Notes under the pieces: generated by a model
The model's database searches: none
The model's input: the letters and a program-made list of their open reading frames with translations, nothing else
What the model was told of the DNA's origin: nothing
NCBI RefSeq assembly: GCF_016894245.1
Contig: NZ_CP069792.1
Coordinates: forward strand, 1,116,001 to 1,180,000
DNA: 64,000 bases
DNA from: Corynebacterium kroppenstedtii
Lineage (GTDB): Bacteria; Actinomycetota; Actinomycetes; Mycobacteriales; Mycobacteriaceae
Direction of reading: 5' to 3'
Translations under genes and position numbers: made by a program
Part shown: positions 1 through 22,888 of the stretch, in pieces
Layout: each line of letters opens with the position of its first letter
Position numbering within the stretch: the stretch's first letter is position 1

Positions 1-1
1 A

Positions 2-712
2 TGGGCGGATCCACACACGCGCCACCCTGATTCCCCCGCCGGGATGGACCAGCCCGCGCCGGATAACCAGGCGAATGAAGAATCCACCCCTGGTGGAACT
101 TTGGTCGGTTGGCCGGAGGATAACGTTGTGTTTTACGTCGTCGATGAGAACTTGAATGAGGTTCCCGACGGCCAGTCCGGTGAACTCTGCATCGCCGGTG
201 CCCAAGTAGGCGCAGGGTATTTCAATAATCCGGAGGTCACCGCGGAGGCGTTCGTGCCGAGCCTTCATCCGGATTGCGACGGTGGGATCATGTATCGCAC
301 GGGCGACGTCATGTCGCGTGATGCGCGGGGGATGCTTCGCTTTGAAGGCCGCATCGGCGACCAGGTAAAAATTCGCGGCAACCGAGTCGAGCTGGGCGAT
401 GTGGAAACTCATTTGCGACGCCTCGACGTGGTGAGCGACGCCGCGGTGGCTGTGGAACGTGCTGGAGGAGAGGCGACACTTGTCGGCGGAATCGTTGTTG
501 CGGCGGGCGCGGCCACCGGTGACGGGAGTGACATTGCTGGTCACCCTACTATTCCGCAACAGGCGAAAGCCGAATTGGCGGCGTTGGTTCCGGAGTACAT
601 GGTGCCCAGCGTCATCGTTGTCATGACGGAACTGCCGCACAATGATCACGGGAAGATCGACAGGCGGGCGCTGATCGCCCACGTGAATGCGGTGAGCTCG
701 GGTCCGTCGTAG
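2..712 (+). CDS. C-terminal part of a nonribosomal-peptide adenylation domain (5' end outside window)
   Basis: The reading frame is open from the first bases of the window, so the start lies upstream; an internal ATG at 44 is not the natural start. The visible part is the end of an AMP-binding adenylation domain: the A7-type motif YRTGDVM, the A8 hinge region around FEGRIGDQVKIRGNRVEL, and the A10-type end NDHGKIDRRAL with the catalytic lysine. The protein stops shortly after A10, with no carrier, condensation or thioesterase domain behind it. It is therefore either a free-standing adenylation enzyme or an NRPS that ends in an A domain. It converges on dhbA with a 7-bp gap. The neighbouring NRPS (1883-9625) has a module lacking its own A domain, so trans loading of that module is a reasonable inference. 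Substrate cannot be read because the A4-A5 pocket is outside the window. Confidence 0.85.
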   Translation, partial: WADPHTRHPDSPAGMDQPAPDNQANEESTPGGTLVGWPEDNVVFYVVDENLNEVPDGQSGELCIAGAQVGAGYFNNPEVTAEAFVPSLHPDCDGGIMYRTGDVMSRDARGMLRFEGRIGDQVKIRGNRVELGDVETHLRRLDVVSDAAVAVERAGGEATLVGGIVVAAGAATGDGSDIAGHPTIPQQAKAELAALVPEYMVPSVIVVMTELPHNDHGKIDRRALIAHVNAVSSGPS

Positions 713-719: not shown

Positions 720-1556
720 CTAGCTATCCAGCGTTGCTCCGCCGTCGACACGAAGATCATGCATGACAATGTGGCGGGCGTTGTCGGACGCGAGGTAGAG
801 GCAGGCCCCGGCGATGTCCTCCGGTTGAGCCAGTCGCTGTAGGGGGATCCCGAGGCGATAATGGTCGGGAGTACCAGCGATAACGTCAGCTGAGCGGTCC
901 TGCCCGGCCGGCCACATTCCGCGAAGCATCGGTGTATCGGTGGAACCCGGGGAGACGATATTCACCCGCACGCCATGTGGCGCGCACTCCAGACCGAGGT
1001 TGCGGGCCCACGCGGTGATCGCCGCTTTCGATGCTCCGTAGGATCCCATGCCCGCGCGCGGGGTCGTCCCTGCGTTGGAGGAAACAACAACAATGGCGCC
1101 GTGTTTCCTCTCGCACATGCGCTGGGCAACGGTCGCACAAACGTGGACAGCTCCGAACATGTTGACCTCGAAGCTCGCGCGCATGGCGTCGGTGTCGCCG
1201 TCGAGCGCGGCGTCGGCACGCAGGATCCCGGCCGTATGAATAAGCACATCGATGGGTCCCCGGTCGGCCTCGATGCGGTTGATCGTCGTGTGCGAGGCCC
1301 CCTTGTCCGTGACATCGAGGACATAATCAACGGGCAGGTCAGCGGTTATATTATCGACGCTGGCTGCGTCACCGTCCGCACCCTCGCTGTGCCCCTGAGG
1401 TACCGTGTCCACAGTGGTTACGCGATATCCCGCGCCTTTGGCTGCGGTGACGACGGCAGCTCCGATACCGCCGAGGGCACCGGTGACCACACAGTGTTGT
1501 TGAAAGGTGTCCGTTTCGGGGGCGTAGTCCTGATTAGACGTACTCATCGTCGCCAT
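720..1556 (-). CDS. dhbA: 2,3-dihydro-2,3-dihydroxybenzoate dehydrogenase (DhbA/EntA-like SDR)
   Basis: A 278-residue short-chain dehydrogenase. It has the nucleotide-binding glycine motif VVTGALGGIG near the N terminus, a VVSS segment with the catalytic serine, and the YGASK tyrosine-lysine pair. EntA/DhbA enzymes oxidise 2,3-dihydro-2,3-dihydroxybenzoate to 2,3-dihydroxybenzoate with NAD+. The family fold is clear; the substrate assignment rests on its place beside an aryl carrier protein, an NRPS, a DHB-AMP ligase and, further on, an isochorismatase. The start at 1556 is chosen because the stop of the upstream carrier gene and this ATG overlap as TGATG, with GAGGAAA about 10 bases upstream, indicating translational coupling. 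A longer start at 1589 would run into the carrier gene; another ATG at 1547 is possible. Confidence 0.85.
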   Translation of the reverse strand: MATMSTSNQDYAPETDTFQQHCVVTGALGGIGAAVVTAAKGAGYRVTTVDTVPQGHSEGADGDAASVDNITADLPVDYVLDVTDKGASHTTINRIEADRGPIDVLIHTAGILRADAALDGDTDAMRASFEVNMFGAVHVCATVAQRMCERKHGAIVVVSSNAGTTPRAGMGSYGASKAAITAWARNLGLECAPHGVRVNIVSPGSTDTPMLRGMWPAGQDRSADVIAGTPDHYRLGIPLQRLAQPEDIAGACLYLASDNARHIVMHDLRVDGGATLDS

Positions 1557-1813
1557 CACTCGTCGCTTTCCTCGAAAATGTCGACCCACGCGTCAAGAGT
1601 GGGATCCTCGATGAGGTCGGCAAACTCGGCATCCCACCCTTGGCGTCGCGCCCATTCGACGATGTCGATAATGCGCACGGAATCCAGCCCTAGGTCAGTG
1701 AGGTCCGCGTCGGTTTCGAGCCTGTCTGCGGGCACCCCGACTGCCGATGCAACGCGGGTGTGGAGTTCGTCGGCAAAGATTTGGGGGCTCAGGGGTGGGT
1801 TAGCTGCACTCAT
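1556..1813 (-). CDS. Free-standing aryl carrier protein (ArCP) for the siderophore pathway
   Basis: An 85-residue acyl-carrier-type protein with the phosphopantetheine site in DLGLDSVRIIDIVEWARRQG, where the serine carries the arm. This matches the carboxy-terminal aryl carrier domain of EntB/DhbB. In those bifunctional proteins it is fused to isochorismatase; here isochorismatase is a separate gene at 18903-19532 without a carrier domain. Its role would be to hold 2,3-dihydroxybenzoate activated by DhbE and present it to the first condensation domain of the NRPS. AAGGAG lies 7 bases before the ATG. It forms a two-gene minus-strand operon with dhbA and is divergent from the NRPS across a 69-bp region holding an iron-box-like sequence. 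Confidence 0.88.
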   Translation of the reverse strand: MSAANPPLSPQIFADELHTRVASAVGVPADRLETDADLTDLGLDSVRIIDIVEWARRQGWDAEFADLIEDPTLDAWVDIFEESDE

Positions 1814-1846
1814 GGTTGGCTCCTTAATTTCTTCTCTCTAGCTGCT

Positions 1847-1885
1847 TGTTTGTTTGTCTTTTGAGCAGTGTAGCCTAACGCTATG
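1847..1885 (+). promoter_or_regulatory. Putative leaderless promoter overlapped by a DtxR-type iron box
   Basis: The NRPS start codon has no Shine-Dalgarno sequence. A TANNNT -10-like hexamer, TAGCCT (1871-1876), lies exactly 6 bases before the ATG at 1883, and a TTGTTT-like -35 lies 18 bases further up (1847-1852). The 19-mer at 1865-1883 contains TAGCCTAAC, the core of the DtxR consensus; I count 12 of 19 matches to TTAGGTTAGCCTAACCTAA. DtxR bound here would cover the -10 and the start. Promoter and operator are inferred from sequence only. Confidence 0.5.
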
Positions 1886-4800
1886 ACCTTTGATTCGGCG
1901 CGTGCGAGTGACCTTGATAATCCAACCTCCTCGGCTGAGGTGAGAGATGGTCAGCACCCCGATGCGGCGCTTTCTGATGACCGCACTTCTTCGGGTACCC
2001 ACAGTTCCGCGGAGTGGTTCCCTTTGACTGCAGCGCAGATGGGTATTTGGAACGCGCAGTTACTGGATCCGAGTTCGCCGTATTACGTCGTGGGCGAGGT
2101 GATGGAGCTCGATCCGACGGATTCTCAGCCGGATATTTCGGTTGCCGACGTTGTTCGGGCGTTGCATCAAACGATCGTGGAAGCTGAAACGCTGCGTTTG
2201 CAGTTCCGTCAGGGGGAGAGCGTGCCGGATGTTTATGCTGACGACTCTCCGCATCAAAGGGGTATTGACGTCGCGCCGGGACAGTACATCACTATCCCCG
2301 TTCATGACCTGCGCGCTCATCCAGCTCCCGAGGCCGCCGCGAACGCCTATGTTGACGCCGCGAAAGCACGGTGCGCGGAGGCGTGGGCGGGTCTTGTCGA
2401 TCGCCCGCTGTGTCACTTTGAGGTTCTTCGCCTGGATCACCGCCGTGTGTGGATCATCCAGCTGTATCACCACCTCATAGTCGACGGCTATGCGTCCATG
2501 ATTCTGGCCCGCCGAACGGCTGCTCACTACACGGAGCTCGCGGGCGGTAAAAAAGCACGTCCGGCGAAATTTAGCGCGGTGCGCAACGTCGTTAAGGAAG
2601 ATCGCGAGTACCACGACTCAGAAAACCGGGATCGCGATGCGCAGTGGTGGCAGGAGTCGCTGGCGGGAGTTGGTAGCACGCAGTGGCGGGACGAACTCAT
2701 CGGAGGGTCGGAGAGCTCCAGCCGGACAACGGTGCTCACGGTGGACGCCGACGAACTGGACTCGTGGAAAGCCGCCTCCCAGCGCCACGGAACGACGTGG
2801 GTCGATTCCTTATTGGCGGCCTACGGCGTGTACTTGCGGCGCGTGCAGGGGGTGGACGCCGACGAATTGGTGGTGGCCATGCCGTTCGCGGCGCGAGAAA
2901 CCGCAGCTCAGCGTCGTACTCCGGCGATGATGGTCAATATGCTGCCCGTGCGGTTGCCTATCGACCTCACCATGACCCTGCCGGAGAACGCGCACGCCAT
3001 CGAAGAGACAATGCGGACCGTGCGCCAGCACCAGCGGTTCCCGGGGTCCGAGGTGGCTACGGCGTACGGCGATTCCTCGATCTTGCGCGGGATTGGTGCC
3101 AACCTGAAGGTTTTTGACGCCGCCCTCAAGTTCGGGACAACGCGAGGCTACCTCCGCAACGTAGCGGGTGGCCCGCCGGAAAACCTCGTGTTGGTTGCCG
3201 CGCCGGGCCGGTCTGGCGGTGTGGATCTGAGTTTTGAGACAGTCGCCGATGTCCCGCCGGAGGTTGTTCACCAGCGGTTATCCGATATTCGGGCTGTGGT
3301 GAATGTGGGGTTGGGGTTGGACCAGCGGCCGGAGGCCACGAGTGTCAGCGGTCATGGCGGCCCCGGCGATTCACTCGATGGCCCCACCGTGTTGCCGGAT
3401 AAAGACGCCGAGAGCGACTTACCCGCTTCGTGCGACATCAGTATCCGCCCTGAACGGATCCCGACCGAGATTCGTGACGAGTGGGACGGTGAATCATTAC
3501 TCGACGCGTCAACTGATGCTTCATCCGACGGTTCAATGCAGTCACTGGATAGTCTAATCGACTCGCTTGCGCAGCGGTGGAGTAATCGTGTTGTGCTGGC
3601 CGATGGTTCGCCGGAATCGTCGGAAACCTCCGCCAGTGAGACGGGTGCCAGTTACAACGGTTCTGAACTGGTAAAACTGTGTGATCAGCTGGCGGATGCC
3701 ATCGTGGCGGTGTGCCCGACTGGTGGCGTCGTGGCCATTGATATGCCGAAGAGCGCAGCCCAAGCTATTGCGGTTCTGGCTTCGTTGCGTGCGCACCGCC
3801 CGTTCGTGGTCATTGACGACGATGCCCCTCAGGACCGGCGTTCGTTCATCATGAAAGATAGTGCCGTGGCGGCTGTGGTGACGGGACTTGATGACGTTCA
3901 GCCTGTAGCACACCACGATAATGAGCAGCCGCCACACAGCCCCGCGCACGAAGCCGATGAGGCGGTATATTCCGACGAGTTGGCGTATATCATCTACACG
4001 TCCGGCACGACGGGACGGCCAAAGGGCGTGAACGTCAGCAGGCGCGCCGTGGAGCACTTGATCGCGGGCCACCGGATGCAGCTATTCCCAGAGACGCTCG
4101 ATCATGTTGCGGATAGCCAGCCTCAGGTGTCCGCCTCGCTGGCCCACACGGCGTCGTTCGCGTTCGATGCCGCCATCGACCAGCTTTCATGGATCTTTGC
4201 CGGCGTGCGCGTCGTGATTTATAACCGTTCCACTGTTGCCGATGGAGAGGCTTTTTATCAGAGCCTTCGCCGCGACGACATCACGATGATCGACGCCACA
4301 CCTTCACTGTTTGGTGCGCTGCTCGCCTCGGGCGTTCCCCTGCTTGACGCGAAGAAATCGCAGATCAGGGCCGTGTTGCTCGGCGGAGAACCCATGCCGC
4401 AGCAGCTGTGGGACCAGGTGGCCGCAGCGACGCACGTCATCGGATGGAACATGTATGGCCCGTCGGAAGCAACCGTCGACGCTGTGTGCGCACGAATCAC
4501 ACCGGGCACGGTGACGGTCGGTTGGCCTGTGCCGGGCATGTCACTCCGAATTTGCGACGCTTCGGGCGAGGTCGTTCCCCCGGGTGAAGAAGGCGAATTG
4601 TGGCTGATGGGAAATCAGATCGCGCAGGGGTATAGGAATAATCTGGACGCGACGGCCCACGCATTTTTTCGTGCCGACGTCACCGCTAGCCGCCCTCGTG
4701 CCGACGCAACAACCGATGCCCACGCGCTCGTCCCCGCGTATCGCACCGGCGATCGTGTCCGGTGGGTGCCGGACCGTGGAGTGGCGTTCATCGGACGCGT

Positions 4801-7800
4801 GGATAATCAGATCGAGGTGCGGGGGCATCGCGTAGAACTGGAAGAAATCGACGGTGCTCTCGTCGCGCTTCCAGGTGTTCGCGCAGCTGGCACGGTCGCA
4901 GTTGTTGGTGGCACCGGCGATGCGCCCCTTCAGGATGAGGAAAACTCTGTATCAACCGGGGACGGCCGCACGCAGGTGGGCACTGTACCTCTACATATCC
5001 GAGCAGGAGTTGTTCTTGAGGGCGTGGTTGGGGACGTGACCGCGCCCGATAGTGATTCCGGTGATCCTCAGCCGAACGTGGATGACGTCAGGCAGCGGCT
5101 TTCCGAACTGCGTGAGCACCTCTCGCGAAAACTTCCGGACTATATGGTCCCATCCACCCTTGTTGCAGTGCCCCAGATTCCGCGAACGTCAACCGAAAAA
5201 ATTGACCGACGAGCGCTCCGCGACCTGATTGAGCAGGCGGCTCTGTCTACCGGCCGTACGAGCGAGCGCCAGAGTAGCGGGGGCCACCAAACTTTAGGTA
5301 AAGACCTTCGGGCACCTGAAACACCGCGTGAGCTTGTTGTTGCTCGCGTGATCCGGGATGTGATGGGGCAGCCGGCCGACCTTGATGTGGATTTCATCAA
5401 TCAGGGTGGGGATTCCATTACCGCGCTCGTGGTTGCTGGTCGTGTGCAGCAGGAAGGCTTTGAGATCCGCCCGGCAGATATTCTTTCCGGACGTCCCTTG
5501 GGCGAGATAGCTGCTTCATTACATCGGTCGTCGTCGGGTGTATCGACCAGTTCTGCCGCGCCAGCTACGTCTCATATCTCCCCGACTAGCACAAATGGTC
5601 ATAGTGCCCCAGAGGCGCGCGGGGATATTCTGACCGACTTTGGTGTGGTGGACGCCCCGTCGGGAATGGAGCGATCAGCTTTCACTGGTCCCGAGCAGCC
5701 GGTGATGTCGGCCGTGATTCCCTCTGTCGTGAATATGGATGACGACGAGTGCCGCGCATGCGCGATAAGGCTAGCTGAGGATGTGCCGGCTCTTCGTAGC
5801 ATTGCGACGTGGGATGCTGATTCGTCCGGCTCTGAGCAGGTCATTATCCGACGCCATCCCGCCGACGATGACGTTTTTCGTACACCCATTGATCTTGCCG
5901 CAGGACGGCCATTCGCCCTCGAGCCTGTCGACGGTGGTGTGCGCCTGAGCGTACACAGTGCGGTTGTTGATGCCGACGGGTTCGGGCAGCTCATTAGCAT
6001 TGTCGAGGCGCTCGTGCAACGGGCTGGCCACGGTGGCGGACGCAGTGATTTTCATAGTGATGGCCGCCAGCATCGCTATGCCTCATGGCGGGGACACTCT
6101 GCCCCGGCACTCCCGTGGGCACACAGCCGCGCCAGTGCCGCTGCGACGATTGAACCGTCACTCGCGAAGGCTCTACTCAGTAACCTCGGAAAGAAATTTG
6201 GGCTCTCTGGCCAGGACATTCTGACCGCAGCTGCTCTGATCGCCTCGGCTGGTGACCACGACGCGCCTCTCACCGCGATGGTGGTGGGCCGTGCAGAATA
6301 TCAACCTTCTGTTCGCTCCGCTGGCCAGCCTTTGAACTTCGGAAACGTTGCTACGCGTGGGGTGGTTGGTCGGTTCGCTGCTCCGGGGTATGTCACCGTG
6401 TCGCAGTCGGGTTCGTCTTTGGATTCTCGGGCAGGGATGGAGAAGCTCCTGCTCAGTGTGAAAGAGCAACGCGCAAAACTGTGTGCGACTGATCCCACTA
6501 ATCCCCCTAATCCCACTGATCCCGCCGACAATGCGTCGGGTACTCCGGCCATCACTCTGGAACTCGGACACATTCCTGGCCCGACCATTGCGGGTTCCGC
6601 CACCCCGGATCACGATTTGCAACGCCACATTCTCATCCCACGCCGCCACACCTTACGCCCCGGCTTCCCTAATGCCCCGCATGTCACGGCGTGGGTCACG
6701 GAAGCCGACACAGCTGAGCACAGCACTGGACCCGTCGGCAATGAACCCGGTGAACCGTCGATCAGTATGACCGTTGATGCAGAAACGGATGACCGCGCGG
6801 AACAGCTCGCGGATGGCGTCGTCAATGCTCTGACAGATTTGGCCGTTTTCGGGTTGAGTGCGGAGGGCAGTGCGTCGCCCTCGGATTGTTTAGCGCCAGT
6901 GACCAGCGCGGATATCGAGCACTGGCAGCGCCGGTTCGGCCCGCTTCAAAACGTGTACGGGCTCTCACCGCTGCAAGAGGGCCTGCTGTACCAGGCGCTG
7001 GATTCCCGCGAGCGCGACCATTATGTGATCGCGGCGTCGATGACCGTCGAAGGCCTAGTGGACCCGGAACTCCTGCGTACTAGCTTCGAGGCGATGATGA
7101 ACCGTCAAGATGTGCTCAAGGCGGCGTTTGATTATGAAACACTCGACCGCCCAGTGCACGTCATTCCACGCACCCCCCGGTGGCAGTGGTCGGTGATCGA
7201 TGCTCGCGGACTTCCGTCGCGTGCGCAGTCGCCACTTATCGACGACGTTCTGGACCGGATGGCTTCCCGCCAGCTTGATGTGACGCGCGGGAACATGGTC
7301 GCGGCGAGTCTAGTGAGATTGGGCGATCGGCGCAGCCAGCTTGTATTGGGGAATCATCATATTCTTACCGATGGGTGGTCCACGACTATCCTTGTGCGTG
7401 AGCTGATGCACGTGTATAACCGCGCTGTTGAGCTTCTGAACGGCGGAAATGCCGGTCATGCGGACGAGGGAATCGCGTGCTCGGAGGTCCCCCACTCGAA
7501 GGACCCGGAGTCCGCGCGCTCACACGCCGTCGTGGCTGCTGTTGCTGAATTGCCGGCGAAGTACCCGTACGGCCAATTTGTTGAGGACATGCAGCCCCGA
7601 GTGAAGGCTGACACTGAACTGTGGATCGACCACGTGGCAGGTCTTGACCATGCAAGCCGAGTAATGGATGTCCTCACGCCCCACGTCGAGCCCGTCTCCT
7701 CCGCGGCTGATAACGATTCCGGCGAAGAACACTGCGTCGTACAGCTCTCCGACCAGCAGAAAGCTGATCTTTCCCGCTGCGCCCGCACTGTCGGCGTCAC

Positions 7801-9625
7801 CCCTAATACGCTCATTCAGACTGCGTGGGCGTGTGTCGTTGCGGCCCTGACCGGCCATGACGACGCCGTGTTTGGTGTGGTCACTTCGGGCCGGCCAAGT
7901 GAGCTCGACGGTATCGACAACACGATTGGCCTTTTTATTAACACGCTTCCAGTACGCGTGGACCTGCGCGGGGACTCGCTGGCCTCGGTCCTGCGTACCC
8001 ACGCGCGCGCCCAGGCCGAGTTGGCGGACCACACCTCTGCCTCCCTGGCCGATATCGAGCGCCGGGTGGACGATTCTCGTGGTGAGGCTCCGCTGTCGGG
8101 GCCGCTCTTCGACTCCTTGGTGGTGTACGACAATTTCCCCGACGAGTTCTCGGAAACAGATTCGCCGGCCGGCTCGCTGCCTGACTCCGACGATCACGCC
8201 CCTGCGTCCCGCGGTATCCGCATCACGGGACTGACTACTCGTGGCGAAACCCAGTACCCGTTGACGGTGATCCATCCGCCGGGCGGCCCATTCGATCTGG
8301 CACTGGCCTACCAGCGTGGAGTGGTTCCGCAGCAGGTGGCTACTATTCTTGCCGACGTTCTTCGCGCCACCTTGTCGCGGTGTGGCACTGTTGCCGACGC
8401 TGAATCGTCTGACTCGTTGCGTGTGATTCGCGATGAGATTGCGCCGATGCTTGACAATATTCGACGCCAACCGGGGCAGAACGCGGACGGCCACGCCACC
8501 CAAGACCATGAGGACGAGCCGGTGGCGGACCCCACCACCCTGGGTCTCACCAACTCAAACCAGCCCAAGGCGGACAATGAGCGCCCTGACCCGAATAGCC
8601 AGCTGTTACGCGATATTTGCGAAGACATTGCTGGTTTGCTTAACCGCCCGGAGGTGGATCCCGATGTTGCCTTTGAGGATCTAGGGGTTCACTCGCTCAT
8701 GGCTGTCCGTCTCATGGGGAAGCTCCGGAAACGTGGCCACAAGCTGGACATCCAGACGATTGTGGAGGCTGGTTCTCCTCGCGGCATTGTCCGAGCGATC
8801 GAGGGCGATTCACCCCAGCCGACCATCCCCACCGACTCGCGCGATAACCCTTCCCGCCCTCCTTGGATGATTACTTTGAAGGAAGGCAAAGGCCGCCCCG
8901 TCTTCTGCTTCCACGCAATTGACGGTTCGGTGTTCTCCTACCAGGGGCTGGCCGAGTACCTCACCACTGGCCGCCCCATCATCGGCATTCAATTCCCGGC
9001 GGACATCTCTGATCCCCTTAGCTGGAATAAGGCAGTCGACCTCTACGCGTCCGCAATCCATGACTACCAGCCCGAGGGGTCCTACACCTTCGTTGGGTTT
9101 TCCTTCGGGGCGACGATTGCCCATGCCGTTAGCGCATGCCTAAACCAACAGCGCACCACTGCCACCAGTCCCGTCGTTGATCTCCTCGTGGTCCTGGATG
9201 CCTATCCAGCCCGCGCCGGGCTGACGCCACCCCCGATCCCGGACGATCTCAACGTGGACCTTCTTTCTGATATCACCGGTTTCAGTGCCCACGATCTGCG
9301 TGCCGACGACACCCTCCGCGACCGGTCGGAGTGCTCCGTTCAGGCGTGCGCGCGATGGATGGGGGAGGTTAGCGACACCCCTGTGCGTGGCATCGTGAAG
9401 AAAGTTGTTCTTATCACGGCAGAGAAGGCGCCGATTGGGCGGAACACGTCGGGAGTAGTTGAGCGCCCGAAACCTGATCAGCAAGCCCAGTGGAACCCGG
9501 CAGAGGCTTGGGAAAACACCGGGGTGGAGTTACGCACGCACTCGGTTCCCCTGGATCATGGCGGGCTGGCCTCATTGGCGGGGTGGAAATTGAGCGCTCC
9601 TGTTATTGGGGAGGAACTGGATTAA
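1883..9625 (+). CDS. Siderophore nonribosomal peptide synthetase, C-A-T-(degenerate E/C)-C-T-TE
   Basis: A 2580-residue NRPS related to DhbF/EntF. Domains in order: condensation about 45-490 (HHLIVDG, H196/H197/D201); adenylation about 555-1115 (YTSGTTG from 705, A5 MYGPSEATVD, A10 lysine K1106); carrier with GGDSI at S1178; a region about 1260-1660 resembling an epimerisation/condensation domain but with HSAVVDA at 1358-1364 in place of HHxxxDG; a second condensation domain about 1690-2130 (HHILTDG, H1825-G1831); a second carrier with GVHSL at S2271; and a thioesterase about 2335-2580 (GFSFGA, S2407; H2559). The second module has no adenylation domain. My manual Stachelhaus reading of the A domain is roughly D-A-D-D-V-L-M-V-D-K; two acidic pocket residues suggest a basic amino acid, which is only a guess. 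It would join 2,3-DHB to amino acid(s) and release the product. dhbE follows 82 bases downstream. Confidence 0.93.
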   Translation: MTFDSARASDLDNPTSSAEVRDGQHPDAALSDDRTSSGTHSSAEWFPLTAAQMGIWNAQLLDPSSPYYVVGEVMELDPTDSQPDISVADVVRALHQTIVEAETLRLQFRQGESVPDVYADDSPHQRGIDVAPGQYITIPVHDLRAHPAPEAAANAYVDAAKARCAEAWAGLVDRPLCHFEVLRLDHRRVWIIQLYHHLIVDGYASMILARRTAAHYTELAGGKKARPAKFSAVRNVVKEDREYHDSENRDRDAQWWQESLAGVGSTQWRDELIGGSESSSRTTVLTVDADELDSWKAASQRHGTTWVDSLLAAYGVYLRRVQGVDADELVVAMPFAARETAAQRRTPAMMVNMLPVRLPIDLTMTLPENAHAIEETMRTVRQHQRFPGSEVATAYGDSSILRGIGANLKVFDAALKFGTTRGYLRNVAGGPPENLVLVAAPGRSGGVDLSFETVADVPPEVVHQRLSDIRAVVNVGLGLDQRPEATSVSGHGGPGDSLDGPTVLPDKDAESDLPASCDISIRPERIPTEIRDEWDGESLLDASTDASSDGSMQSLDSLIDSLAQRWSNRVVLADGSPESSETSASETGASYNGSELVKLCDQLADAIVAVCPTGGVVAIDMPKSAAQAIAVLASLRAHRPFVVIDDDAPQDRRSFIMKDSAVAAVVTGLDDVQPVAHHDNEQPPHSPAHEADEAVYSDELAYIIYTSGTTGRPKGVNVSRRAVEHLIAGHRMQLFPETLDHVADSQPQVSASLAHTASFAFDAAIDQLSWIFAGVRVVIYNRSTVADGEAFYQSLRRDDITMIDATPSLFGALLASGVPLLDAKKSQIRAVLLGGEPMPQQLWDQVAAATHVIGWNMYGPSEATVDAVCARITPGTVTVGWPVPGMSLRICDASGEVVPPGEEGELWLMGNQIAQGYRNNLDATAHAFFRADVTASRPRADATTDAHALVPAYRTGDRVRWVPDRGVAFIGRVDNQIEVRGHRVELEEIDGALVALPGVRAAGTVAVVGGTGDAPLQDEENSVSTGDGRTQVGTVPLHIRAGVVLEGVVGDVTAPDSDSGDPQPNVDDVRQRLSELREHLSRKLPDYMVPSTLVAVPQIPRTSTEKIDRRALRDLIEQAALSTGRTSERQSSGGHQTLGKDLRAPETPRELVVARVIRDVMGQPADLDVDFINQGGDSITALVVAGRVQQEGFEIRPADILSGRPLGEIAASLHRSSSGVSTSSAAPATSHISPTSTNGHSAPEARGDILTDFGVVDAPSGMERSAFTGPEQPVMSAVIPSVVNMDDDECRACAIRLAEDVPALRSIATWDADSSGSEQVIIRRHPADDDVFRTPIDLAAGRPFALEPVDGGVRLSVHSAVVDADGFGQLISIVEALVQRAGHGGGRSDFHSDGRQHRYASWRGHSAPALPWAHSRASAAATIEPSLAKALLSNLGKKFGLSGQDILTAAALIASAGDHDAPLTAMVVGRAEYQPSVRSAGQPLNFGNVATRGVVGRFAAPGYVTVSQSGSSLDSRAGMEKLLLSVKEQRAKLCATDPTNPPNPTDPADNASGTPAITLELGHIPGPTIAGSATPDHDLQRHILIPRRHTLRPGFPNAPHVTAWVTEADTAEHSTGPVGNEPGEPSISMTVDAETDDRAEQLADGVVNALTDLAVFGLSAEGSASPSDCLAPVTSADIEHWQRRFGPLQNVYGLSPLQEGLLYQALDSRERDHYVIAASMTVEGLVDPELLRTSFEAMMNRQDVLKAAFDYETLDRPVHVIPRTPRWQWSVIDARGLPSRAQSPLIDDVLDRMASRQLDVTRGNMVAASLVRLGDRRSQLVLGNHHILTDGWSTTILVRELMHVYNRAVELLNGGNAGHADEGIACSEVPHSKDPESARSHAVVAAVAELPAKYPYGQFVEDMQPRVKADTELWIDHVAGLDHASRVMDVLTPHVEPVSSAADNDSGEEHCVVQLSDQQKADLSRCARTVGVTPNTLIQTAWACVVAALTGHDDAVFGVVTSGRPSELDGIDNTIGLFINTLPVRVDLRGDSLASVLRTHARAQAELADHTSASLADIERRVDDSRGEAPLSGPLFDSLVVYDNFPDEFSETDSPAGSLPDSDDHAPASRGIRITGLTTRGETQYPLTVIHPPGGPFDLALAYQRGVVPQQVATILADVLRATLSRCGTVADAESSDSLRVIRDEIAPMLDNIRRQPGQNADGHATQDHEDEPVADPTTLGLTNSNQPKADNERPDPNSQLLRDICEDIAGLLNRPEVDPDVAFEDLGVHSLMAVRLMGKLRKRGHKLDIQTIVEAGSPRGIVRAIEGDSPQPTIPTDSRDNPSRPPWMITLKEGKGRPVFCFHAIDGSVFSYQGLAEYLTTGRPIIGIQFPADISDPLSWNKAVDLYASAIHDYQPEGSYTFVGFSFGATIAHAVSACLNQQRTTATSPVVDLLVVLDAYPARAGLTPPPIPDDLNVDLLSDITGFSAHDLRADDTLRDRSECSVQACARWMGEVSDTPVRGIVKKVVLITAEKAPIGRNTSGVVERPKPDQQAQWNPAEAWENTGVELRTHSVPLDHGGLASLAGWKLSAPVIGEELD

Positions 9626-9707
9626 CCGCCGACGGAAAAACCACGCGAACGCCACACCACCGCACGAACGCACCACACACAACAAAGCAGCACGAAGGAT
9701 GAGGGTT

Positions 9708-11438
9708 ATGACACATACGACAATTCCATCGCCGAACGCGAAGGAATACGCTCAGCGTGAGGGGGGTGCGGCCAACGGTTGCCCGTGGGAGGACGTGCAG
9801 CGGTACCGGGAGCTGGGGATCTATACGGGTGATACGCACTGGGCGCTACTTGAGCGCGCCCGGGATCTGTATGGAAATGCTCCCGTCGCGGTGGACCGCT
9901 ACCGCTCACTGACCTGGAGTGATGTTCGCCACTCTGCCCGCAAAGTCGGCAACTTACTGCGCGGTTTAGGTATCGCGGAGGGGGACGCCGTCATCGTTCA
10001 ACTGCCCAATGCTGCTGTCCACATGGAAGCGATTTTTGGCATCTGGAGCATTGGCGCCGTTCCCGTCTTCGCCCTTCCCGCACACGGTGCCGACGACGTC
10101 GCCCATTTCGCTCGGACCGCGCCTGCCGGTGTCCGGATCGCTGCAGTTCCGCGCGATAAACACGCCAAGCGGGTTGAGAAAGGCCTTCAGGAGGAGTGCC
10201 CAGAGCTCACGACCATTCAGATCGACCCTCGTGCCGACGACCCGTGGGGCGCCCCCGTAATCAATGGCACCGAAGTCAACGCCAACCCAGACGCCGACAC
10301 AGACCCCACCCCCTGGCCATCCCCTGAACGCGACCCGCAAGCTCTTGCCTTTCTTCAGCTTTCCGGGGGAACCACGGGCACCCCGAAGGTGATCCCTCGC
10401 AGTCACGATGACTATCTGTATTCGGTGCGCCGCTCCGATGAGGTGTGCGATATGCAGCGCGGCGATGTGTTGCTCGTGGTCATGCCGGCGTCGCACAATT
10501 TCACGATGAGCTCGCCCGGCATCTTAGGAGCGCTCCACATTGGCGCCACGGTGGTGTACGTTCCTGATCCTTCGCCCACGACCATCCGCCGCTACATTCA
10601 CGCGCACCGGGGCACGCACATGGCGCTGGTCCCGCCGCTGCTCATTAGCCTGCTCAACAGCCGCGACGAGGCCCAGACCCCCGATCCCACAATGGAGACG
10701 ATGAAAACGGTTTGGGTCGGTGGCGCGAAACTCAGCGCCTCCGCCGCGGAACGCGTCGCCCCGGAGCTAGGGATTAACCTCCAGCAAGTCTTTGGCATGG
10801 CCGAGGGGCTCGTGAATTACACCGAATTGGGCGGCAACATCGATGAGATCGTGAATACTCAGGGTGTGCCCATGAGCCCGGCCGACGAGGTCTACGTTGT
10901 TAATGACGAAGGCGCCCCGGTTGATCGTGGCACCCCAGGCCACCTGCATACTCGCGGGCCGTACACTATCCGCCGCTATCACCGCAACCCGACGGCCAAC
11001 GCGTCGTCATTCACGAATGACGGTTTCTACATCACGGGCGATATCGTCACGGTATCTGCCGACGGTGCGATCACGGTGACCGGCCGCGCTAAAGACCAGA
11101 TCAATCGCGGTGGGGAGAAGATCGCCCCGGAGTCGGTGGAGAATTGCTTACTGAAGCACCCTGCTATTCACGATGTTTCGGTGGTAGGTATTCCCGACGA
11201 TGTGATGGGCGAGAAGATTCGTGCGCTCATTATTCTTCGCGACGATTACAAGCCGGCTGCCACGGATGCCGGGGAATTTCAGGGCAGACAGGATTCCCAC
11301 CAACCCACGACGGCGATGCAGATTAAGAAGTTCGTCCGCGAATCAGGATTATCACGCTTCGCCGTACCTGATGTCGTCGAATTCGTTGATGAATTTCCAC
11401 TGACAGGCGTCGGCAAGGTGAGTAAGAAAGGCCAGTGA
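9708..11438 (+). CDS. dhbE: 2,3-dihydroxybenzoate-AMP ligase (DhbE/EntE-like)
   Basis: A 576-residue member of the ANL superfamily. It shows the phosphate loop LSGGTTGTPK, the A5-type motif QVFGMAEGLVNYTEL, YITGD, the hinge region KDQINRGGEKIAPESVE, and the C-terminal lysine in TGVGKVSKK. EntE/DhbE adenylates 2,3-dihydroxybenzoate and transfers it to the aryl carrier protein, here the free-standing one at 1556-1813. Related enzymes (YbtE, MbtA) use salicylate; the dihydroxybenzoate assignment leans on dhbA and the isochorismatase in the same window. The start at 9708 is chosen because AAGGA lies about 8 bases upstream and family similarity begins soon after. An upstream in-frame start at 9606 would overlap the NRPS gene. 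Probably co-transcribed with the NRPS. Confidence 0.9.
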   Translation: MTHTTIPSPNAKEYAQREGGAANGCPWEDVQRYRELGIYTGDTHWALLERARDLYGNAPVAVDRYRSLTWSDVRHSARKVGNLLRGLGIAEGDAVIVQLPNAAVHMEAIFGIWSIGAVPVFALPAHGADDVAHFARTAPAGVRIAAVPRDKHAKRVEKGLQEECPELTTIQIDPRADDPWGAPVINGTEVNANPDADTDPTPWPSPERDPQALAFLQLSGGTTGTPKVIPRSHDDYLYSVRRSDEVCDMQRGDVLLVVMPASHNFTMSSPGILGALHIGATVVYVPDPSPTTIRRYIHAHRGTHMALVPPLLISLLNSRDEAQTPDPTMETMKTVWVGGAKLSASAAERVAPELGINLQQVFGMAEGLVNYTELGGNIDEIVNTQGVPMSPADEVYVVNDEGAPVDRGTPGHLHTRGPYTIRRYHRNPTANASSFTNDGFYITGDIVTVSADGAITVTGRAKDQINRGGEKIAPESVENCLLKHPAIHDVSVVGIPDDVMGEKIRALIILRDDYKPAATDAGEFQGRQDSHQPTTAMQIKKFVRESGLSRFAVPDVVEFVDEFPLTGVGKVSKKGQ

Positions 11439-14077: not shown

Positions 14078-14131
14078 CGCTGGAGGGGGAACTCGACAAT
14101 CTATTTTGCAGTGGTTTGCCTTCAAGAGTAG
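13043..14131 (+). CDS. IS3-family transposase OrfB (DDE integrase)
   Basis: A DDE-type catalytic subunit with all three acidic positions: WVSDVAEF (first Asp), HTDRGVQY (second Asp) and NAVMENFFGHLKAE (Glu). It normally joins with OrfA by ribosomal frameshifting to give the active transposase. The frame overlaps orfA by 77 bases and its first codons really belong to the OrfA zipper. The reading frame has no stop before the right inverted repeat and runs about 54 bases into flanking DNA, so the last residues are host-encoded. Confidence 0.85.
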   Translation: MRPCAPNDGPTTRPDDPEAQLRRRIEQSEAENAYLKTAGLEKRAARIKTQIIAILKSDHRLADLLKAAGLARSTYFYHLQRLNRPDKHADLKAAIQAIFTANQQRYGYRRMLAVLRNQGWMVNHKLVFTLMDQMGLKSKVRRRTKYTSYTRAITHSADNILDRHFAPDHPNAVWVSDVAEFRVAGRKVYLSPVMDLYDRSILAYELSTSPSTMLTATSLRTALEGHQPGRGLMVHTDRGVQYHHFSWRRLIEQSGAVQSMSRKGNCYDNAVMENFFGHLKAEMYYGEHFASLDEFSLAIDRYIAWYNNDRVQERIAGLAPRNTGVRPLQPPSRRIKPVQLSGASSRWRGNSTIYFAVVCLQE

Positions 14132-18902: not shown

Positions 18903-19532
18903 TCACCCCTCCAGCACGTCCACCACCTCCTCAGCATCAACCACGCGTCCGCACCGTCGCGCCACCCAATCAATGGTCGCGGCGTGGTCGTCGCGGGTGA
19001 AGTCGGCAATGGCATCGCGAACAAGGAACGGCTGGATGTCGTTCATGAATGCGTCCACCGCACTCACCCCGCATCCCATGTGGCCGTAAACCCCGGTGAT
19101 GATCAGTTGGTCGCGCTTTGCAAACGCTAAGGATTCTCGAAGGTCTGTTCGGGCGAACGCCGAGTACCTCCACTTGGTGATCACATGGTGGTGCTTCTGC
19201 GGTGTCAACTCCGGGATAATGTCCGCGTCCGCGTCGGTTTGAATACCTTGCCCCCACAATTCGCGGAGCAGCCCTCGGCGGTATTTCTTCTGTTCCGGCG
19301 GTTGGGCCGTGTAGAAGACGGGGATGTTGGCCTTGTCGGCACGAGCAACGAGTTGTTGAATGTTGGCCACCATCGCGGACGCTGGCTCTTTGTCGGGGGT
19401 ATACGCAGAGATGAAGTAGTTCTGCATGTCGTGAACCAAGAGAGCCGCGCGATCGGCATGAAGTGCCCAGTTGACAGCGGGTTTCGCCGAGAGGGTGGGG
19501 ATGGTGTACGGCGCGATGGGTGGGATTGCCAC
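18903..19532 (-). CDS. Isochorismatase (EntB/DhbB N-terminal domain only)
   Basis: A 209-residue isochorismatase-like hydrolase. Typical landmarks are the N-terminal IPPIAPYTIPT, the catalytic Asp in LLVHDMQNYF, the Lys in ITKWRYSAF, and the nucleophile region VYGHMGCGVSAVDAF. It hydrolyses isochorismate to 2,3-dihydro-2,3-dihydroxybenzoate and pyruvate, the substrate for DhbA. EntB and DhbB are near 290-310 residues because they carry a C-terminal aryl carrier domain; this one stops where that domain would begin, and the carrier is encoded at 1556-1813. Start is a GTG with AAGGAG 9 bases upstream. It is divergent from the siderophore-binding lipoprotein across a region with a DtxR-like box. 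No isochorismate synthase gene is visible in the window. Confidence 0.9.
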   Translation of the reverse strand: MAIPPIAPYTIPTLSAKPAVNWALHADRAALLVHDMQNYFISAYTPDKEPASAMVANIQQLVARADKANIPVFYTAQPPEQKKYRRGLLRELWGQGIQTDADADIIPELTPQKHHHVITKWRYSAFARTDLRESLAFAKRDQLIITGVYGHMGCGVSAVDAFMNDIQPFLVRDAIADFTRDDHAATIDWVARRCGRVVDAEEVVDVLEG

Positions 19533-19620: not shown

Positions 19621-19639
19621 TTAGGCAAGCCATACTGAA
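19621..19639. promoter_or_regulatory. DtxR-type iron box between isochorismatase and siderophore-binding gene
   Basis: TTAGGCAAGCCATACTGAA matches 13 of 19 positions of the DtxR consensus TTAGGTTAGCCTAACCTAA (my count), including the TTAGG half-site and the central AGCC. It sits in the divergent intergenic region and could repress both genes when iron is sufficient. Confidence 0.6.
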
Positions 19640-19749
19640 TGGTAGACGGATCGCGGGTTGGTGGTCATCCTGGCCCCCAACCAGATGATTGTCAGCCTCT
19701 GCCACAGCCTCGTGGCCTGCATTGTTCATACTTATGTATTGGAGTTTCC

Positions 19750-20808
19750 GTGAAGCGTTCACTTGTTCGCCCAATGCCCTTGATCGCTCTGACGTTAGCC
19801 GGTTCGTTGGTTCTGGGTGCGTGCTCGAATGATGACGACAGTTCCAGCGATTCCACTGCCGCAGATTCAACCAGCCAGAGCGCGTCTGAGGGTGCGAAGG
19901 ATTCGTCGGATGCCAAGGAAGTCACGATTAAGCACGCGTGGGGTGAAGATACGTACCCGGTGAAGCCGAAGAAGGTTGTGGCGATGGGTACGTCGGTTGA
20001 TAACCTCCTTGCCTTGGGCATTACCCCCGATGTTGTTGTTCAGAGCCCGGATGATGCCCAAAACGCCACGTGGAAGAACGACAAGCTGAAAGACGTCAAG
20101 AAGATTGACGCCGATCCTCGCGAACTGCCGGTAGAGAAGATCGCGGCCGAGAAGCCCGACTTTATCGTTGGTGACTTCTACCGCATTAATGAGGATGCTT
20201 ACAACAAGCTGAAGGACGTTGCGCCGACCCTTCCGGGTATGGGCCAGGATCCGCAGCTGATCGGCTGGAAGCCACAGCTGGAGGCCTTGGGCAAGATTTA
20301 CCAGGATGAGGACAAGGTCAAGGACGTCGAGAAGAAGGACTCGGAAGCCTTCGAGAACGCGAAGAAGGACTTGAAGGGGCTGGAAGGTAAGTCGGCGTTG
20401 GTGGTTCAGCACCGCAGCGGGAACTTCGGTGTGATTACCGATGAGGCCAACCCGGCCAACCAGTTCTTCACCGACCTGGGGATGAAGCTGCCTGCCGGGT
20501 ACACGGATGGTTCGATTCCGACTCAGCAGGGCCGGGCCATGATTTCTCCGGAGAACATTGACAAGTTGACTGCGGACTTCATGGTTCTTTTCGCTGCCGA
20601 CGGGATGGACGCGGTTCGCGCTGTTCCGGGTTACAACGATCTGAAGCAGGTCAAGAGCGGTGCCACGGTTGAGGATAATAAGGCTGTGTCCTCGGCGCTG
20701 TATGTTCCGTCCTCATTGTCCCGTGAGTGGGCTTTGAAGGAAATCAAGCCGGAGTTGAAGAAGGTGTCGGATAACAAGTCTGATTCGAAGGATGACTCCG
20801 ATAAGTAA
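19750..20808 (+). CDS. Ferric-siderophore-binding lipoprotein (FepB/FecB-like)
   Basis: A 352-residue lipoprotein: positively charged n-region MKRSLVRPMP, hydrophobic core and lipobox LVLGAC, then a low-complexity Ser/Asp linker. The mature part has the class III periplasmic-binding fold markers PKKVVAMGTSVDNLLALG and EKIAAEKPDFIVGD, and the late segment PGYNDLKQV. It would capture the ferric siderophore at the cell surface for an ABC importer. No permease or ATPase partner is in the window. The GTG at 19750 is chosen because GGAG lies 5 bases upstream and it gives a normal signal peptide; the longer frame from 19639 overlaps the iron box. A terminator follows at 20876. Confidence 0.9.
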   Translation: MKRSLVRPMPLIALTLAGSLVLGACSNDDDSSSDSTAADSTSQSASEGAKDSSDAKEVTIKHAWGEDTYPVKPKKVVAMGTSVDNLLALGITPDVVVQSPDDAQNATWKNDKLKDVKKIDADPRELPVEKIAAEKPDFIVGDFYRINEDAYNKLKDVAPTLPGMGQDPQLIGWKPQLEALGKIYQDEDKVKDVEKKDSEAFENAKKDLKGLEGKSALVVQHRSGNFGVITDEANPANQFFTDLGMKLPAGYTDGSIPTQQGRAMISPENIDKLTADFMVLFAADGMDAVRAVPGYNDLKQVKSGATVEDNKAVSSALYVPSSLSREWALKEIKPELKKVSDNKSDSKDDSDK

Positions 20809-20974: not shown

Positions 20975-22888
20975 ATGAAACGCAATAGCCGTCACCACGA
21001 CATTTTCCCGATTTCTCTGCGCGAGATTACGGTGAGTCGTGTTGTAGACATCACCCCGGGAATGCGACGCATTACGTTCACCAGTGACGAATTTGACGCC
21101 CACCAACAGGGCGACGTGCAGGTCCCCGAGATGATAAGCACAGGTTTTGACGACGACGTGCGTTTGATTTTCCCCCACCCGGAGACAGGGGAGCGGCCGG
21201 CCCCCAGGGCGTTGGGTGATGGTCGTTTGGAGTGGACTGCGGAAATCAACGAGTTGTTCCGCACGTACACAGTGCGCCGATGGGATGCCGGGACCGGTGA
21301 AGTGGATATTGATTTCGCCCGTCATGGGTCTGGCTTGGCCGAATCGTGGTCGGAGTCCGCGGCTCCTGGTGACAGTATTTATATGGCCGGTCCGAAGAAT
21401 TGTGGCGCTCTTCCCGAGGGGGTGGATTGTTTGCTCCTGGCGGGGGACGAGACCGCGTTGCCGGCCATCGGCCGGTGCGTGGAGAGCTACCCCTCATTAA
21501 AAGCGGTCGCGGTCATTGAGGTCACCACGCCGGACCGTATTCAGAAGTTGAATATTTCATCCCCCGACGTGGAACTGCATTGGGTGGTGAGGTCCCAGGG
21601 TCAGTCTCTTGGCAGCGCGCTCGAATCCCTGGACTGGCCCGAGGGCACGCCGTACGTCTGGTGCGCTGGGGAGGCCGGCCAGCTCCGCGGCATTCGCAAG
21701 CTGGTTAAGGAACGCGGCGTGAAGCCGGAGAACACCCAGATCGTGGGCTATTGGCGTGACGGCAACGCCTCCACCAGCAAGGCCACCAGCACCATCGCCG
21801 CCTACAACCGCTTGGCGGAGATGGCAGATATTGCCCCGGCCTTCGCCGTCCGAGCTGGCGCCGAGGCCGGCATATTCGCAGCCATCGACGCCGGCTTGAC
21901 CACCCCGGAGCCCCTGGCCGAGAAGACTGGTATTGCCTCTGATCGCTTGGTGAGGTTTATGCGGTATCTAGCCGCCTTGGAGCTGGTGACTATCGAGCAT
22001 GAAGAAAGCCCGTCCTCAGATCAGCCTTCTGACGGCGCGGTGACGTATGGGCTCACTCCGGTGGGTATGGAGTTGGCGGACCCGACCTCTCCAGCGGGTG
22101 GCTACCTATCGGGCTTCGGTTCCATGCCCGCCATGTCCTTTATCCACGTGGGCCGCGGTTTGCGTACCGGGAATCCCGTCCAGCTAGGCACATCCGGTCG
22201 CACAATGTCCGAGTGGCAGGACGCGAAGCCGGAGCTGGATAGCCATATGGCGGTGGGTGCGAACCTCCGCATGAGTTGGGTTGCGCCCGCTGTGGTGGCG
22301 GGCTTGGACCTAGGTGGTGCCTCCTCGGCGCTGACGCTGGGCCCTGGTGCCGCTGTTCTCGCCGATGAGCTCACCCGCACCAATCCGTCCTTGTCGGTTA
22401 CGATTGTGGATCGTCCGGAGCATGAAGAGCTCAACATGGCGGAAGTCAATGATTCTCGACGCTCTCGGGTCTCCCATGTCCACGCGTCGGATCCTGCGTC
22501 TGTCCCGTCGGATCAGTTCGATATCCCTCGGGCCGATGTTGCCGTCGTTCATGATCCGTGGGGCGGTGCCGTGGCCGGAATGGACTCGAATATGGGTTCG
22601 GGAAGTCCCGATTCCAGTTCCGATGGTTCAGTCAGCGGTGCTGGTGTTATAGCTCATCTTTCAGACACTGTGTCGTTAATCGTCATTGTTACCCAGGTTC
22701 TGGCCGACGACGGCTCCGGTGATGAAGAAGACTACGAGGCGGACATCCAACGCATGCTTGTCTCGGGGGCGTCGATTCCGACTGAGCGGGACGTTCGGGT
22801 TGCGTTACGCGATGCTGGCTTTGAAGTGGAGAGCCGGCAGCCGGTGGGATGGGGGCCTATCCGTTTTGTTGCTCGCAGGGTTGGATGA
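20975..22888 (+). CDS. Siderophore-interacting flavoprotein fused to an O-methyltransferase-like domain
   Basis: Residues 1 to about 258 form a siderophore-interacting protein (SIP) reductase: an FAD-binding RTYTVRRWD motif, GDETALPAIGR, WCAGEAGQLRGIRKL and the family-typical end VGYWRDG. Such enzymes release iron from ferric siderophores by reducing it in the cytoplasm. From about residue 275 the protein continues with a winged-helix region as in O-methyltransferases (AEAGIFAAIDAGL..LAEKTGIASDRLVRFMRYLAAL) and then a Rossmann-like domain. Its SAM-binding loop reads LDLGGASSALTLGP, with a poor match to the usual GGGxG, so catalytic activity is doubtful. Length 637 is more than twice a normal SIP (about 270). 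AAAGGA lies 8 bases before the ATG. It follows the binding lipoprotein gene but sits behind a terminator. Confidence 0.88.
   Translation: MKRNSRHHDIFPISLREITVSRVVDITPGMRRITFTSDEFDAHQQGDVQVPEMISTGFDDDVRLIFPHPETGERPAPRALGDGRLEWTAEINELFRTYTVRRWDAGTGEVDIDFARHGSGLAESWSESAAPGDSIYMAGPKNCGALPEGVDCLLLAGDETALPAIGRCVESYPSLKAVAVIEVTTPDRIQKLNISSPDVELHWVVRSQGQSLGSALESLDWPEGTPYVWCAGEAGQLRGIRKLVKERGVKPENTQIVGYWRDGNASTSKATSTIAAYNRLAEMADIAPAFAVRAGAEAGIFAAIDAGLTTPEPLAEKTGIASDRLVRFMRYLAALELVTIEHEESPSSDQPSDGAVTYGLTPVGMELADPTSPAGGYLSGFGSMPAMSFIHVGRGLRTGNPVQLGTSGRTMSEWQDAKPELDSHMAVGANLRMSWVAPAVVAGLDLGGASSALTLGPGAAVLADELTRTNPSLSVTIVDRPEHEELNMAEVNDSRRSRVSHVHASDPASVPSDQFDIPRADVAVVHDPWGGAVAGMDSNMGSGSPDSSSDGSVSGAGVIAHLSDTVSLIVIVTQVLADDGSGDEEDYEADIQRMLVSGASIPTERDVRVALRDAGFEVESRQPVGWGPIRFVARRVG

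What the first reader, a model, noticed from the sequence alone, without database searches (positions are those of the whole stretch)
1883..9625. NRPS with a second condensation-carrier module that lacks an adenylation domain
The order C-A-T-(E/C-like)-C-T-TE is visible from motifs: there is one A domain (A3 at residue 705, A10 lysine at 1106) but two phosphopantetheine sites (S1178, S2271). The carrier before the thioesterase has no cognate A domain in the protein. Known DhbF-type synthetases have an A domain in every module. Either T2 is loaded in trans, or the single A domain feeds both carriers, or C2-T2 works as a stalled relay or oligomerisation module. This could give an undescribed catecholate siderophore architecture.
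Basis: partly seen in the sequence, partly recalled or inferred. Interest (0 to 1): 0.75.

Follow-up and report, generated by a model that had tools for sequence, protein, structure and literature searches.

The report
Siderophore synthetase with separate loading enzyme
A bacterial iron-scavenger assembly enzyme that seems to lack one of its loading domains most likely gets that domain from a separate gene just upstream, and it also carries an epimerase-type domain that has lost its catalytic motifs.

Summary
In detail: the 2580-aa NRPS is C-A-T-(E)-C-T-TE with one A domain, two carriers (S1178, S2271) and no A domain in module 2. It is not a frameshift: three close orthologues share the layout.

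A free-standing NRPS-type A domain (622 aa) lies directly upstream on the same strand; the window holds only its last 712 bases. Such a gene precedes the NRPS in 29 of 29 genomes of the genus that carry it, with a conserved specificity code. Near it lie an amino acid N-hydroxylase and an acyltransferase-type gene. In four further species the locus is reduced to hydroxylase, free A with the identical code, and a free T-TE protein. So T2 is most likely loaded in trans with an (acyl-)N-hydroxy lysine or ornithine, and the product here is a mixed catechol-hydroxamate siderophore.

The 'E/C-like' part is an epimerization-domain homologue that has lost both catalytic motifs. Loss and retention are two sides of one branch of the tree, yet the dead domain is kept under purifying selection.

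A-less modules served by trans A domains are known; I found no description of this cluster or its dead E domain in ten text searches. New variant of a known kind.

The parts
1883..9625 (+). NRPS, 2580 aa: C1 (41-480), A1 (556-1125), T1 (1141-1215, GGDSI), degenerate E (about 1246-1690), C2 (1691-2200), T2 (2236-2312), TE (2331-2579); borders are mine
1..712 (+). 3' part of a free-standing NRPS-type A domain (whole gene G000:C1:1114844-1116712, 622 aa, window -1156 to 712); proposed trans-loader of T2; A3 at residue 182, A10 lysine at 604, no carrier domain
720..1589 (-). EntA/DhbA-like 2,3-dihydro-2,3-dihydroxybenzoate dehydrogenase
   Evidence: TIGR04316, 1.3e-81, 273.9 bits (below its cut-off of 300)
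1556..1813 (-). Free-standing carrier protein, 85 aa (GLDS motif), proposed aryl carrier for 2,3-dihydroxybenzoate
   Evidence: PF00550, 6.4e-12
9606..11438 (+). DhbE/EntE-like 2,3-dihydroxybenzoate adenylating enzyme (true start probably inside this frame)
   Evidence: TIGR02275, 4.5e-151, 503.7 bits (below its cut-off of 723.55)
18903..19532 (-). Isochorismatase-superfamily protein, 209 aa, without a carrier domain (proposed EntB role)
   Evidence: PF00857, 1.8e-40; one search gave no isochorismatase equivalog
19639..20808 (+). Siderophore-type substrate-binding lipoprotein (PF01497)
20975..22888 (+). Siderophore-interacting protein (PF04954/PF08021) with a C-terminal part that matches a methyltransferase dimerisation domain
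5618..6952 (+). Degenerate epimerization domain (residues about 1246-1690): HSAVVDADG in place of HHxxxDxxSW, no ExHGR

Best explanation
The NRPS is the core of a mixed catechol-hydroxamate siderophore pathway, and its module 2 is loaded in trans. Proposed steps: (1) 2,3-dihydroxybenzoate is made, activated by the DhbE-like enzyme and placed on the small free carrier. (2) C1 joins it to the amino acid on T1 that A1 selects, probably a cationic residue such as arginine. (3) A lysine (or ornithine) side chain is N-hydroxylated by the flavoenzyme and probably N-acylated by the PF13523 protein. (4) The free-standing A domain activates that residue and loads T2. (5) C2 joins the two halves and TE releases the product. 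The E domain between T1 and C2 no longer epimerizes, so the first residue should stay L here and be D in relatives with an intact E. Shown by computation: domain layout, gene neighbourhood, conserved codes, loss of E motifs, purifying selection. Inferred: all substrates, the loading event, the product.
For: (a) Free-standing A directly upstream on the same strand in 29 of 29 genomes that carry the NRPS (the reverse search, finds it in all 29). (b) Its code is DV[AG]S[LI]GLMD in 23 of 23 loci where my script read it (of 29); A1 is DADD[LIV]G[MVA]VD in 21 of 21 read (of 29). (c) A homologue of the window genome's PF13523 protein is present in 27 of 29 loci; the two misses lie at contig ends. The N-hydroxylase is found in 25 of 29 loci; the own one matches the L-Lys monooxygenase 4D7E at 8.5e-114. 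(d) Four species with no NRPS match at 1e-60 keep, in the same ribosomal-protein gap, hydroxylase, free A with the identical code and a free T-TE protein, so this A goes with a T-TE carrier. (e) T2 has on average the lowest dN/dS of the domains (0.02-0.11; six pairs of four sequences), so it is a working carrier. (f) DHB-type genes and a small carrier lie in the cluster, and an isochorismate synthase gene is elsewhere in the genome.
Against: No loading or product data exist. The substrates are inferred from pocket codes read by analogy; neither code was found in the papers searched. The best solved relatives of the free A's pocket region are serine-activating domains, so serine is not strictly excluded. 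No MbtH-like gene was found in the genome, although the trans A domains of WS9326A biosynthesis depend on one (abstract of PMC7539972). The hydroxylase was not found in the fetched stretch for four loci (two at contig ends; in G173 a strong and in G206 a weak Pfam match lies further out). No strict DtxR box was found in the window or the upstream stretch. EntA and the carrier lie on the opposite strand between the free A and the NRPS, so these are not one transcript. Relatives in other genera have an A-less module 2 without any free NRPS-type A nearby, so an A-less C-T can manage otherwise. The EntA-, EntE- and EntB-like genes do not reach curated equivalog cut-offs.
Confidence: 0.78

Rival explanations
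1. The single in-cis A1 loads both T1 and T2, as CmnA-A1 does for CmnI and as in fungal SidD-type synthetases, giving a product with the same residue twice.
For: Precedent in bacteria and fungi (passages of PMC12400406). Relatives in other genera (L087, L088, G401, G542) have an A-less C-T module with no free NRPS-type A in the stretch examined.
Against: A free A is conserved beside the NRPS in 29 of 29 genomes, and in four species it accompanies a T-TE protein in a locus where A1 was not seen. Neither point is expected if A1 did both jobs.
Confidence: 0.08
2. Module 2 is not loaded at all: C2-T2-TE only relays or oligomerises the DHB-aminoacyl intermediate, and the free A serves another pathway.
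For: A-less C-T units occur in other actinobacterial NRPSs, and EntF/DhbF-type TEs oligomerise (recalled).
Against: It leaves the free A, hydroxylase and acyltransferase next to the NRPS unexplained although they are conserved with it. The hydroxylase-A-T-TE loci pair the A with this carrier type.
Confidence: 0.07
3. The free A loads an unmodified residue such as serine, and hydroxylation or acylation happens later or on another molecule.
For: The pocket region is closest in the PDB to Txo1/2, EntF and FscH, which a review table lists as serine-activating (PMC11253843, passage).
Against: Its code differs at four or five of nine positions from the codes of the DVWH[LIF]SL[VI]D type (recalled as serine codes) read in the same comparisons, and hydroxylase and acyltransferase genes lie near it.
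Confidence: 0.12

Closest known systems
Trans A domains of WS9326A biosynthesis (Cal22, Cal23; PMC7539972, abstract and outline seen)
   Same: Free-standing A domains essential for a modular NRPS
   Different: Not a siderophore (recalled); MbtH-dependent, whereas no MbtH gene was found here
CmnI/VioI A-less modules (PMC12400406, passages seen)
   Same: C-T module without its own A, loaded in trans
   Different: There the A belongs to another module; here a free A gene is conserved with the NRPS
Fuscachelin and cellulochelin pathways (PMC13251462 and PMC8097023, passages seen; the 2008 fuscachelin paper is not held)
   Same: Actinobacterial siderophores with 2,3-DHB and a hydroxamate residue (N-hydroxy-ornithine in cellulochelin)
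   Different: More modules and residues; FscH is listed as a serine-activating A domain (PMC11253843, passage)
Heterobactin-type NRPSs of other actinobacteria (the name is recalled, not tested; loci L087, L088, G401, G542)
   Same: C-A-T-E-C-T start with an A-less second module; A1 code DADD[LV]GMVD in the three of four that were read, identical to the window's in L088
   Different: Two further C-A-T modules before the TE, the last A with code DMEN[LM]GLIN; no free NRPS-type A found in the stretch examined
DhbF/EntF (features recalled)
   Same: DHB starter, C-A-T units and C-terminal TE
   Different: A in every module and no E domain; the window has one A and an E-type domain
Corynebacterium variabile nrpS cluster (PMC3219685, passages seen)
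   Same: C. variabile locus L086 has the same set: hydroxylase, free A, carrier, A-less NRPS, DhbE-like gene
   Different: In the passages seen the paper describes catechol siderophore genes; the word adenylation does not occur in it

Membership tests
NRPS with an A-less module served by a trans A domain | A module with C and T but no A | tested here: met
NRPS with an A-less module served by a trans A domain | A free-standing A gene linked to the NRPS and conserved with it | tested here: met
   29 of 29 genomes
NRPS with an A-less module served by a trans A domain | The free A acylates that carrier | not testable with these tools
   needs a loading assay
DhbF-type dimodular synthetase | An A domain in each module (recalled definition) | tested here: not met
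Epimerization (E) domain, sequence family | Homology to E domains and position between T (GGDSI) and C | tested here: met
   hhalign of 15 degenerate domains against eight intact ones of the genus 1e-24 over 346 columns (both profiles end in the first residues of C2) and against canonical E 2.3e-11 over 234 columns; the intact ones against canonical E 1.6e-35. The structure model (mean pLDDT 65.9, built with E domains in its alignment) finds the C/E fold; five of the six best chains have an E domain in their title
Active epimerization domain | HHxxxDxxSW and ExHGR motifs | tested here: not met
   both absent in the window
2,3-DHB siderophore cluster | EntA-, EntB-, EntE-like genes and an aryl carrier | tested here: inconclusive
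   All four are present as homologues, and the DHB models are the best NCBIfam hits for the EntA- and EntE-like proteins, but below their cut-offs; the isochorismatase is placed by Pfam only
Hydroxamate siderophore cluster | Amino acid N-hydroxylase plus PF13523 acyltransferase | tested here: met

The most novel reading that the evidence does not exclude
The dead epimerization domain has been kept since a single loss event because it has a new non-catalytic role, such as a gate or scaffold that passes an L-configured intermediate from T1 to a condensation domain of the D-accepting type, or recruits a partner as X domains do. Relatives with intact and dead E that share the A1 code would then make the stereochemistry switch directly testable.
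Probability: 0.25. Interest if true: 0.65.

Novelty: new variant of a known kind. Interest (0 to 1): 0.45.

Why it matters
It explains an apparently incomplete siderophore synthetase and predicts hydroxamate-containing siderophores in 29 of the 242 genomes of this genus that were examined, with 2,3-dihydroxybenzoate as the likely cap in the 17 that have the small carrier beside the NRPS. It gives a compact trans-loading system (one free A, one carrier, and natural free T-TE versions) for studying how free A domains find their carriers. The split between relatives with intact and dead E domains offers a natural test of how a condensation domain copes when upstream epimerization is lost.

Tried and rejected
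Frameshift or misread A domain: rejected; three orthologues share the layout and the gap between C2 and T2 is about 36 residues by my borders.

ORF 975-1841 (+) as a gene: rejected; it lies antisense to EntA and the carrier and has no Pfam match.

Single-sequence searches with the E-like segment found only the C2 start in the PDB and nothing in NCBIfam, and a four-row profile gave only probability 7.8 against E domains; the wider family profile resolved it.

Literature search for the two specificity codes: no paper. Statements that something is not in print rest on the ten searches in an open-licence library only.

Strict DtxR box, up to 3 mismatches: none in the window or the upstream stretch. 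No tool named the window's own organism. G233, which the tool calls same genus, has a contig of the same length (126375) as the C. variabile record L086, so the genus is very probably Corynebacterium.

An apparent short acyltransferase match (26 bits) next to the hydroxylase in L195 and L198 was set aside as an effect of antisense overlap in my query, which begins antisense to the hydroxylase.
Full report
Observation. The frame at 1883-9625 encodes 2580 aa. Pfam gives condensation (three stretches), one AMP-binding, two carrier and one thioesterase domain. A comparison with the protein's own domains as queries gives C1 41-480, A1 556-1125, T1 1141-1215, a middle domain, C2, T2 2236-2312 and TE 2331-2579.

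What lies next to it. The window is G000:C1:1116001-1180000 of a one-contig genome of 2,483,614 bases. A search of the whole genome for AMP-binding domains found one that begins before the window: a free-standing NRPS-type A domain, C1:1114844-1116712, whose last 712 bases are window 1-712. It matches the amino acid adenylation family (TIGR01733, 322 bits, over the cut-off of 317.4), ends 18 residues after its A10 lysine and has no carrier. Upstream of it lies a lysine/ornithine N-monooxygenase (PF13434, 4.7e-13; only solved relative the L-Lys monooxygenase 4D7E, 8.5e-114), and divergent from that a PF13523 acetyltransferase. Between the free A and the NRPS, on the other strand, are an EntA-like dehydrogenase and an 85-aa carrier. 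Downstream are a DhbE-like enzyme, an isochorismatase-family protein, a siderophore-type binding lipoprotein and a siderophore-interacting protein. The EntA- and DhbE-like proteins have the DHB models as best NCBIfam hits but below their cut-offs. An isochorismate synthase gene is elsewhere (C1:1729459; TIGR00543 over its cut-off). No MbtH gene was found in the genome.

Relatives in the genus. Of 242 genomes, 29 including the own one match the NRPS at 1e-60. I fetched the surroundings of the other 28. In 28 of 29 the NRPS is one frame; in G163 it is split over three overlapping frames. With the window's domains as queries (not Pfam), all 29 show one A domain and the order C-A-T-x-C-T-TE. A free A in a frame of 523-696 aa lies directly upstream on the same strand in 29 of 29. 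The N-hydroxylase is in the fetched stretch in 25 of 29; of the four misses, L061 and L064 lie at contig ends (L064 has a fragment), and in G173 and G206 a PF13434 match lies further out (strong in G173, weak in G206). A homologue of the PF13523 protein is present in 27 of 29, the misses being the two contig-end loci. A DhbE-like gene lies beside the NRPS in the own genome and 14 others, and 3.8 kb away in G240. Codes read against PheA positions 235-331: A1 DADD[LIV]G[MVA]VD in 21 of 21 read, free A DV[AG]S[LI]GLMD in 23 of 23 read; the script's motif filter did not catch the others of the 29.

Control and natural dissection. Searching the 242 genomes with the free A alone gave 49 with a match at 1e-30: all 29, seven more better than 1e-70, and 13 weaker ones in frames of 2179-5180 aa. 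Four of the seven (G114, G140, G008, G103) carry, in the same gap between the ribosomal genes for S3 and L14 as in the window's genome, the set hydroxylase - free A - free T-TE protein - siderophore-interacting protein. Pfam confirms T-TE in the two tested of four and the A domain in the one tested. Their code is DVASLGLMD in four of four; T-TE is about 30% identical to the window's T2-TE. I saw no condensation domain in that gap, but with limits: my queries also missed the condensation domain that Pfam finds, in part, in a C-A-T-TE protein beyond L5 in G103 (code DVWHISLID), and the gene listing for two of the four was cut. In the three others (G071, G056, G070) the A is embedded in a larger NRPS, with code DVGSLGLMD in the two read. 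So this A type goes with the T-TE carrier when it stands free. This is the strongest evidence for trans loading of T2.

The middle domain. It sits between a T with the GGDSI motif and C2. In 24 loci of the genus examined, nine have both E motifs (HHxxxDxxSW and ExHGR) and 15 have neither; none has only one (three near-copies of the intact type, one near-copy of the degenerate type and the split G163 were left out). As a yardstick, of 87 E domains picked by the first motif from the 78 loci, 85 also have the second. The profile of the 15 degenerate domains matches that of eight intact ones of the genus at 1e-24 over 346 columns (both profiles end in the first residues of C2) and canonical E domains at 2.3e-11 over 234 columns. 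The AlphaFold2 model is of moderate quality (mean pLDDT 65.9) and was built with E domains in its alignment; Foldseek finds the condensation/epimerization fold, five of the six best chains having an E domain in their title, with C domains close behind. On a tree of C1-A1-T1 (28 rows, G163 left out), intact (12) and degenerate (16) are two sides of one branch, support 100/99. The program warned of long branches (G166, G173, G240, G206) and of unequal residue make-up (own, G088, G126, G137, G166, G206), and the root is drawn at the midpoint, so the direction, a single loss, is my reading. Outside the genus, of five related NRPSs with this layout three (G542, G401, L087) have both motifs and two (G546, L088) only ExHGR by the strict pattern. 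Among the window and its three close orthologues, dN/dS of the degenerate domain is 0.21-0.31, against 0.08-0.12 for C1, 0.17-0.23 for A1, 0.15-0.20 for C2 and 0.02-0.11 for T2 (six pairs each). It is therefore constrained, only a little less than A1 and C2. The small carrier directly beside the NRPS on the opposite strand goes with the degenerate type (17 of 17, G163 counted here) and with 0 of 12 of the intact type; one of these (G240) has a carrier 3.5 kb away.

Relatives outside the genus. A search of 397 genomes of the order found the best matches to C2-T2-TE after the own one in G542 and G401. These and the named loci L087 (Pseudonocardia halophobica) and L088 (Nocardia vulneris) have C-A-T-E-C-T followed by two C-A-T modules and TE, with an A-less second module and no free NRPS-type A within the stretch examined. 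G546 has an A in its second module. The A1 code of L088 and G546 is identical to the window's, that of G542 and G401 differs at one position, that of L087 was not read; the last A of L087, L088, G401 and G542 reads DMEN[LM]GLIN. I recall that as the N-hydroxy-ornithine code of coelichelin; a search that included that code found no paper printing it. The name heterobactin for such clusters is recalled, not tested.

Mechanism. Best supported: the free A loads T2 in trans with an (N-acyl-)N-hydroxylated lysine or ornithine; C2 condenses it with the DHB-aminoacyl chain from T1; TE releases. Two acidic residues in the A1 code suggest a cationic residue, perhaps arginine (inference). The D-accepting type of C2 is judged by eye from its first motifs and its similarity to tyrocidine synthetase 2. 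The substrates, the loading and the product are not shown.

Known context. A-less modules and trans A domains are described (WS9326A, abstract of PMC7539972; capreomycin and fungal SidD-type, passages of PMC12400406). Mixed DHB/hydroxamate siderophores are known from actinobacteria (passages of PMC13251462). C. variabile, a member of this family (L086), was reported to have catechol siderophore genes (passages of PMC3219685), and a survey of respiratory corynebacteria lists NRPS clusters (passages of PMC12188740); the word adenylation occurs in neither paper's main text. I therefore call this a new variant of a known kind.

Noticed in passing
L195-L198 (genomes G114, G140, G008, G103): Reduced loci in the same ribosomal-protein gap: N-hydroxylase, free A domain, free-standing T-TE protein, siderophore-interacting protein, with no condensation domain seen in the gap. 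A possible condensation-free hydroxamate assembly.
   Followed up: partly
window 1-22888 and upstream: The siderophore cluster sits between ribosomal protein genes (L2, S3 upstream; L14, L5 from 23215). The three close orthologues share this place, and eight more distant loci lie near the S3 or L2 genes.
   Followed up: partly
window 12691-14131 and 17213-18013: Two integrase-core transposase loci (IS3 type, label recalled) lie between the DhbE-like and isochorismatase genes; these genes are 7.5 kb apart here but about 1.2 kb in G126.
   Followed up: no
window 20975-22888: Siderophore-interacting protein with an extra C-terminal part that matches an O-methyltransferase dimerisation domain; similar long versions occur with the cluster in other species.
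   Followed up: no
window 25284-28493: Large surface protein with three T-Q ester bond stretches and an LASTG sorting-type end (motif read by eye).
   Followed up: no
L062 (G163): The NRPS is split over three overlapping frames, either an assembly error or a decayed gene.
   Followed up: no
L192-L194 (G071, G056, G070): An A domain with nearly the same code (DVGSLGLMD in the two read) is embedded in a larger C-A-T-E-C NRPS, so this A type occurs both in cis and free.
   Followed up: partly
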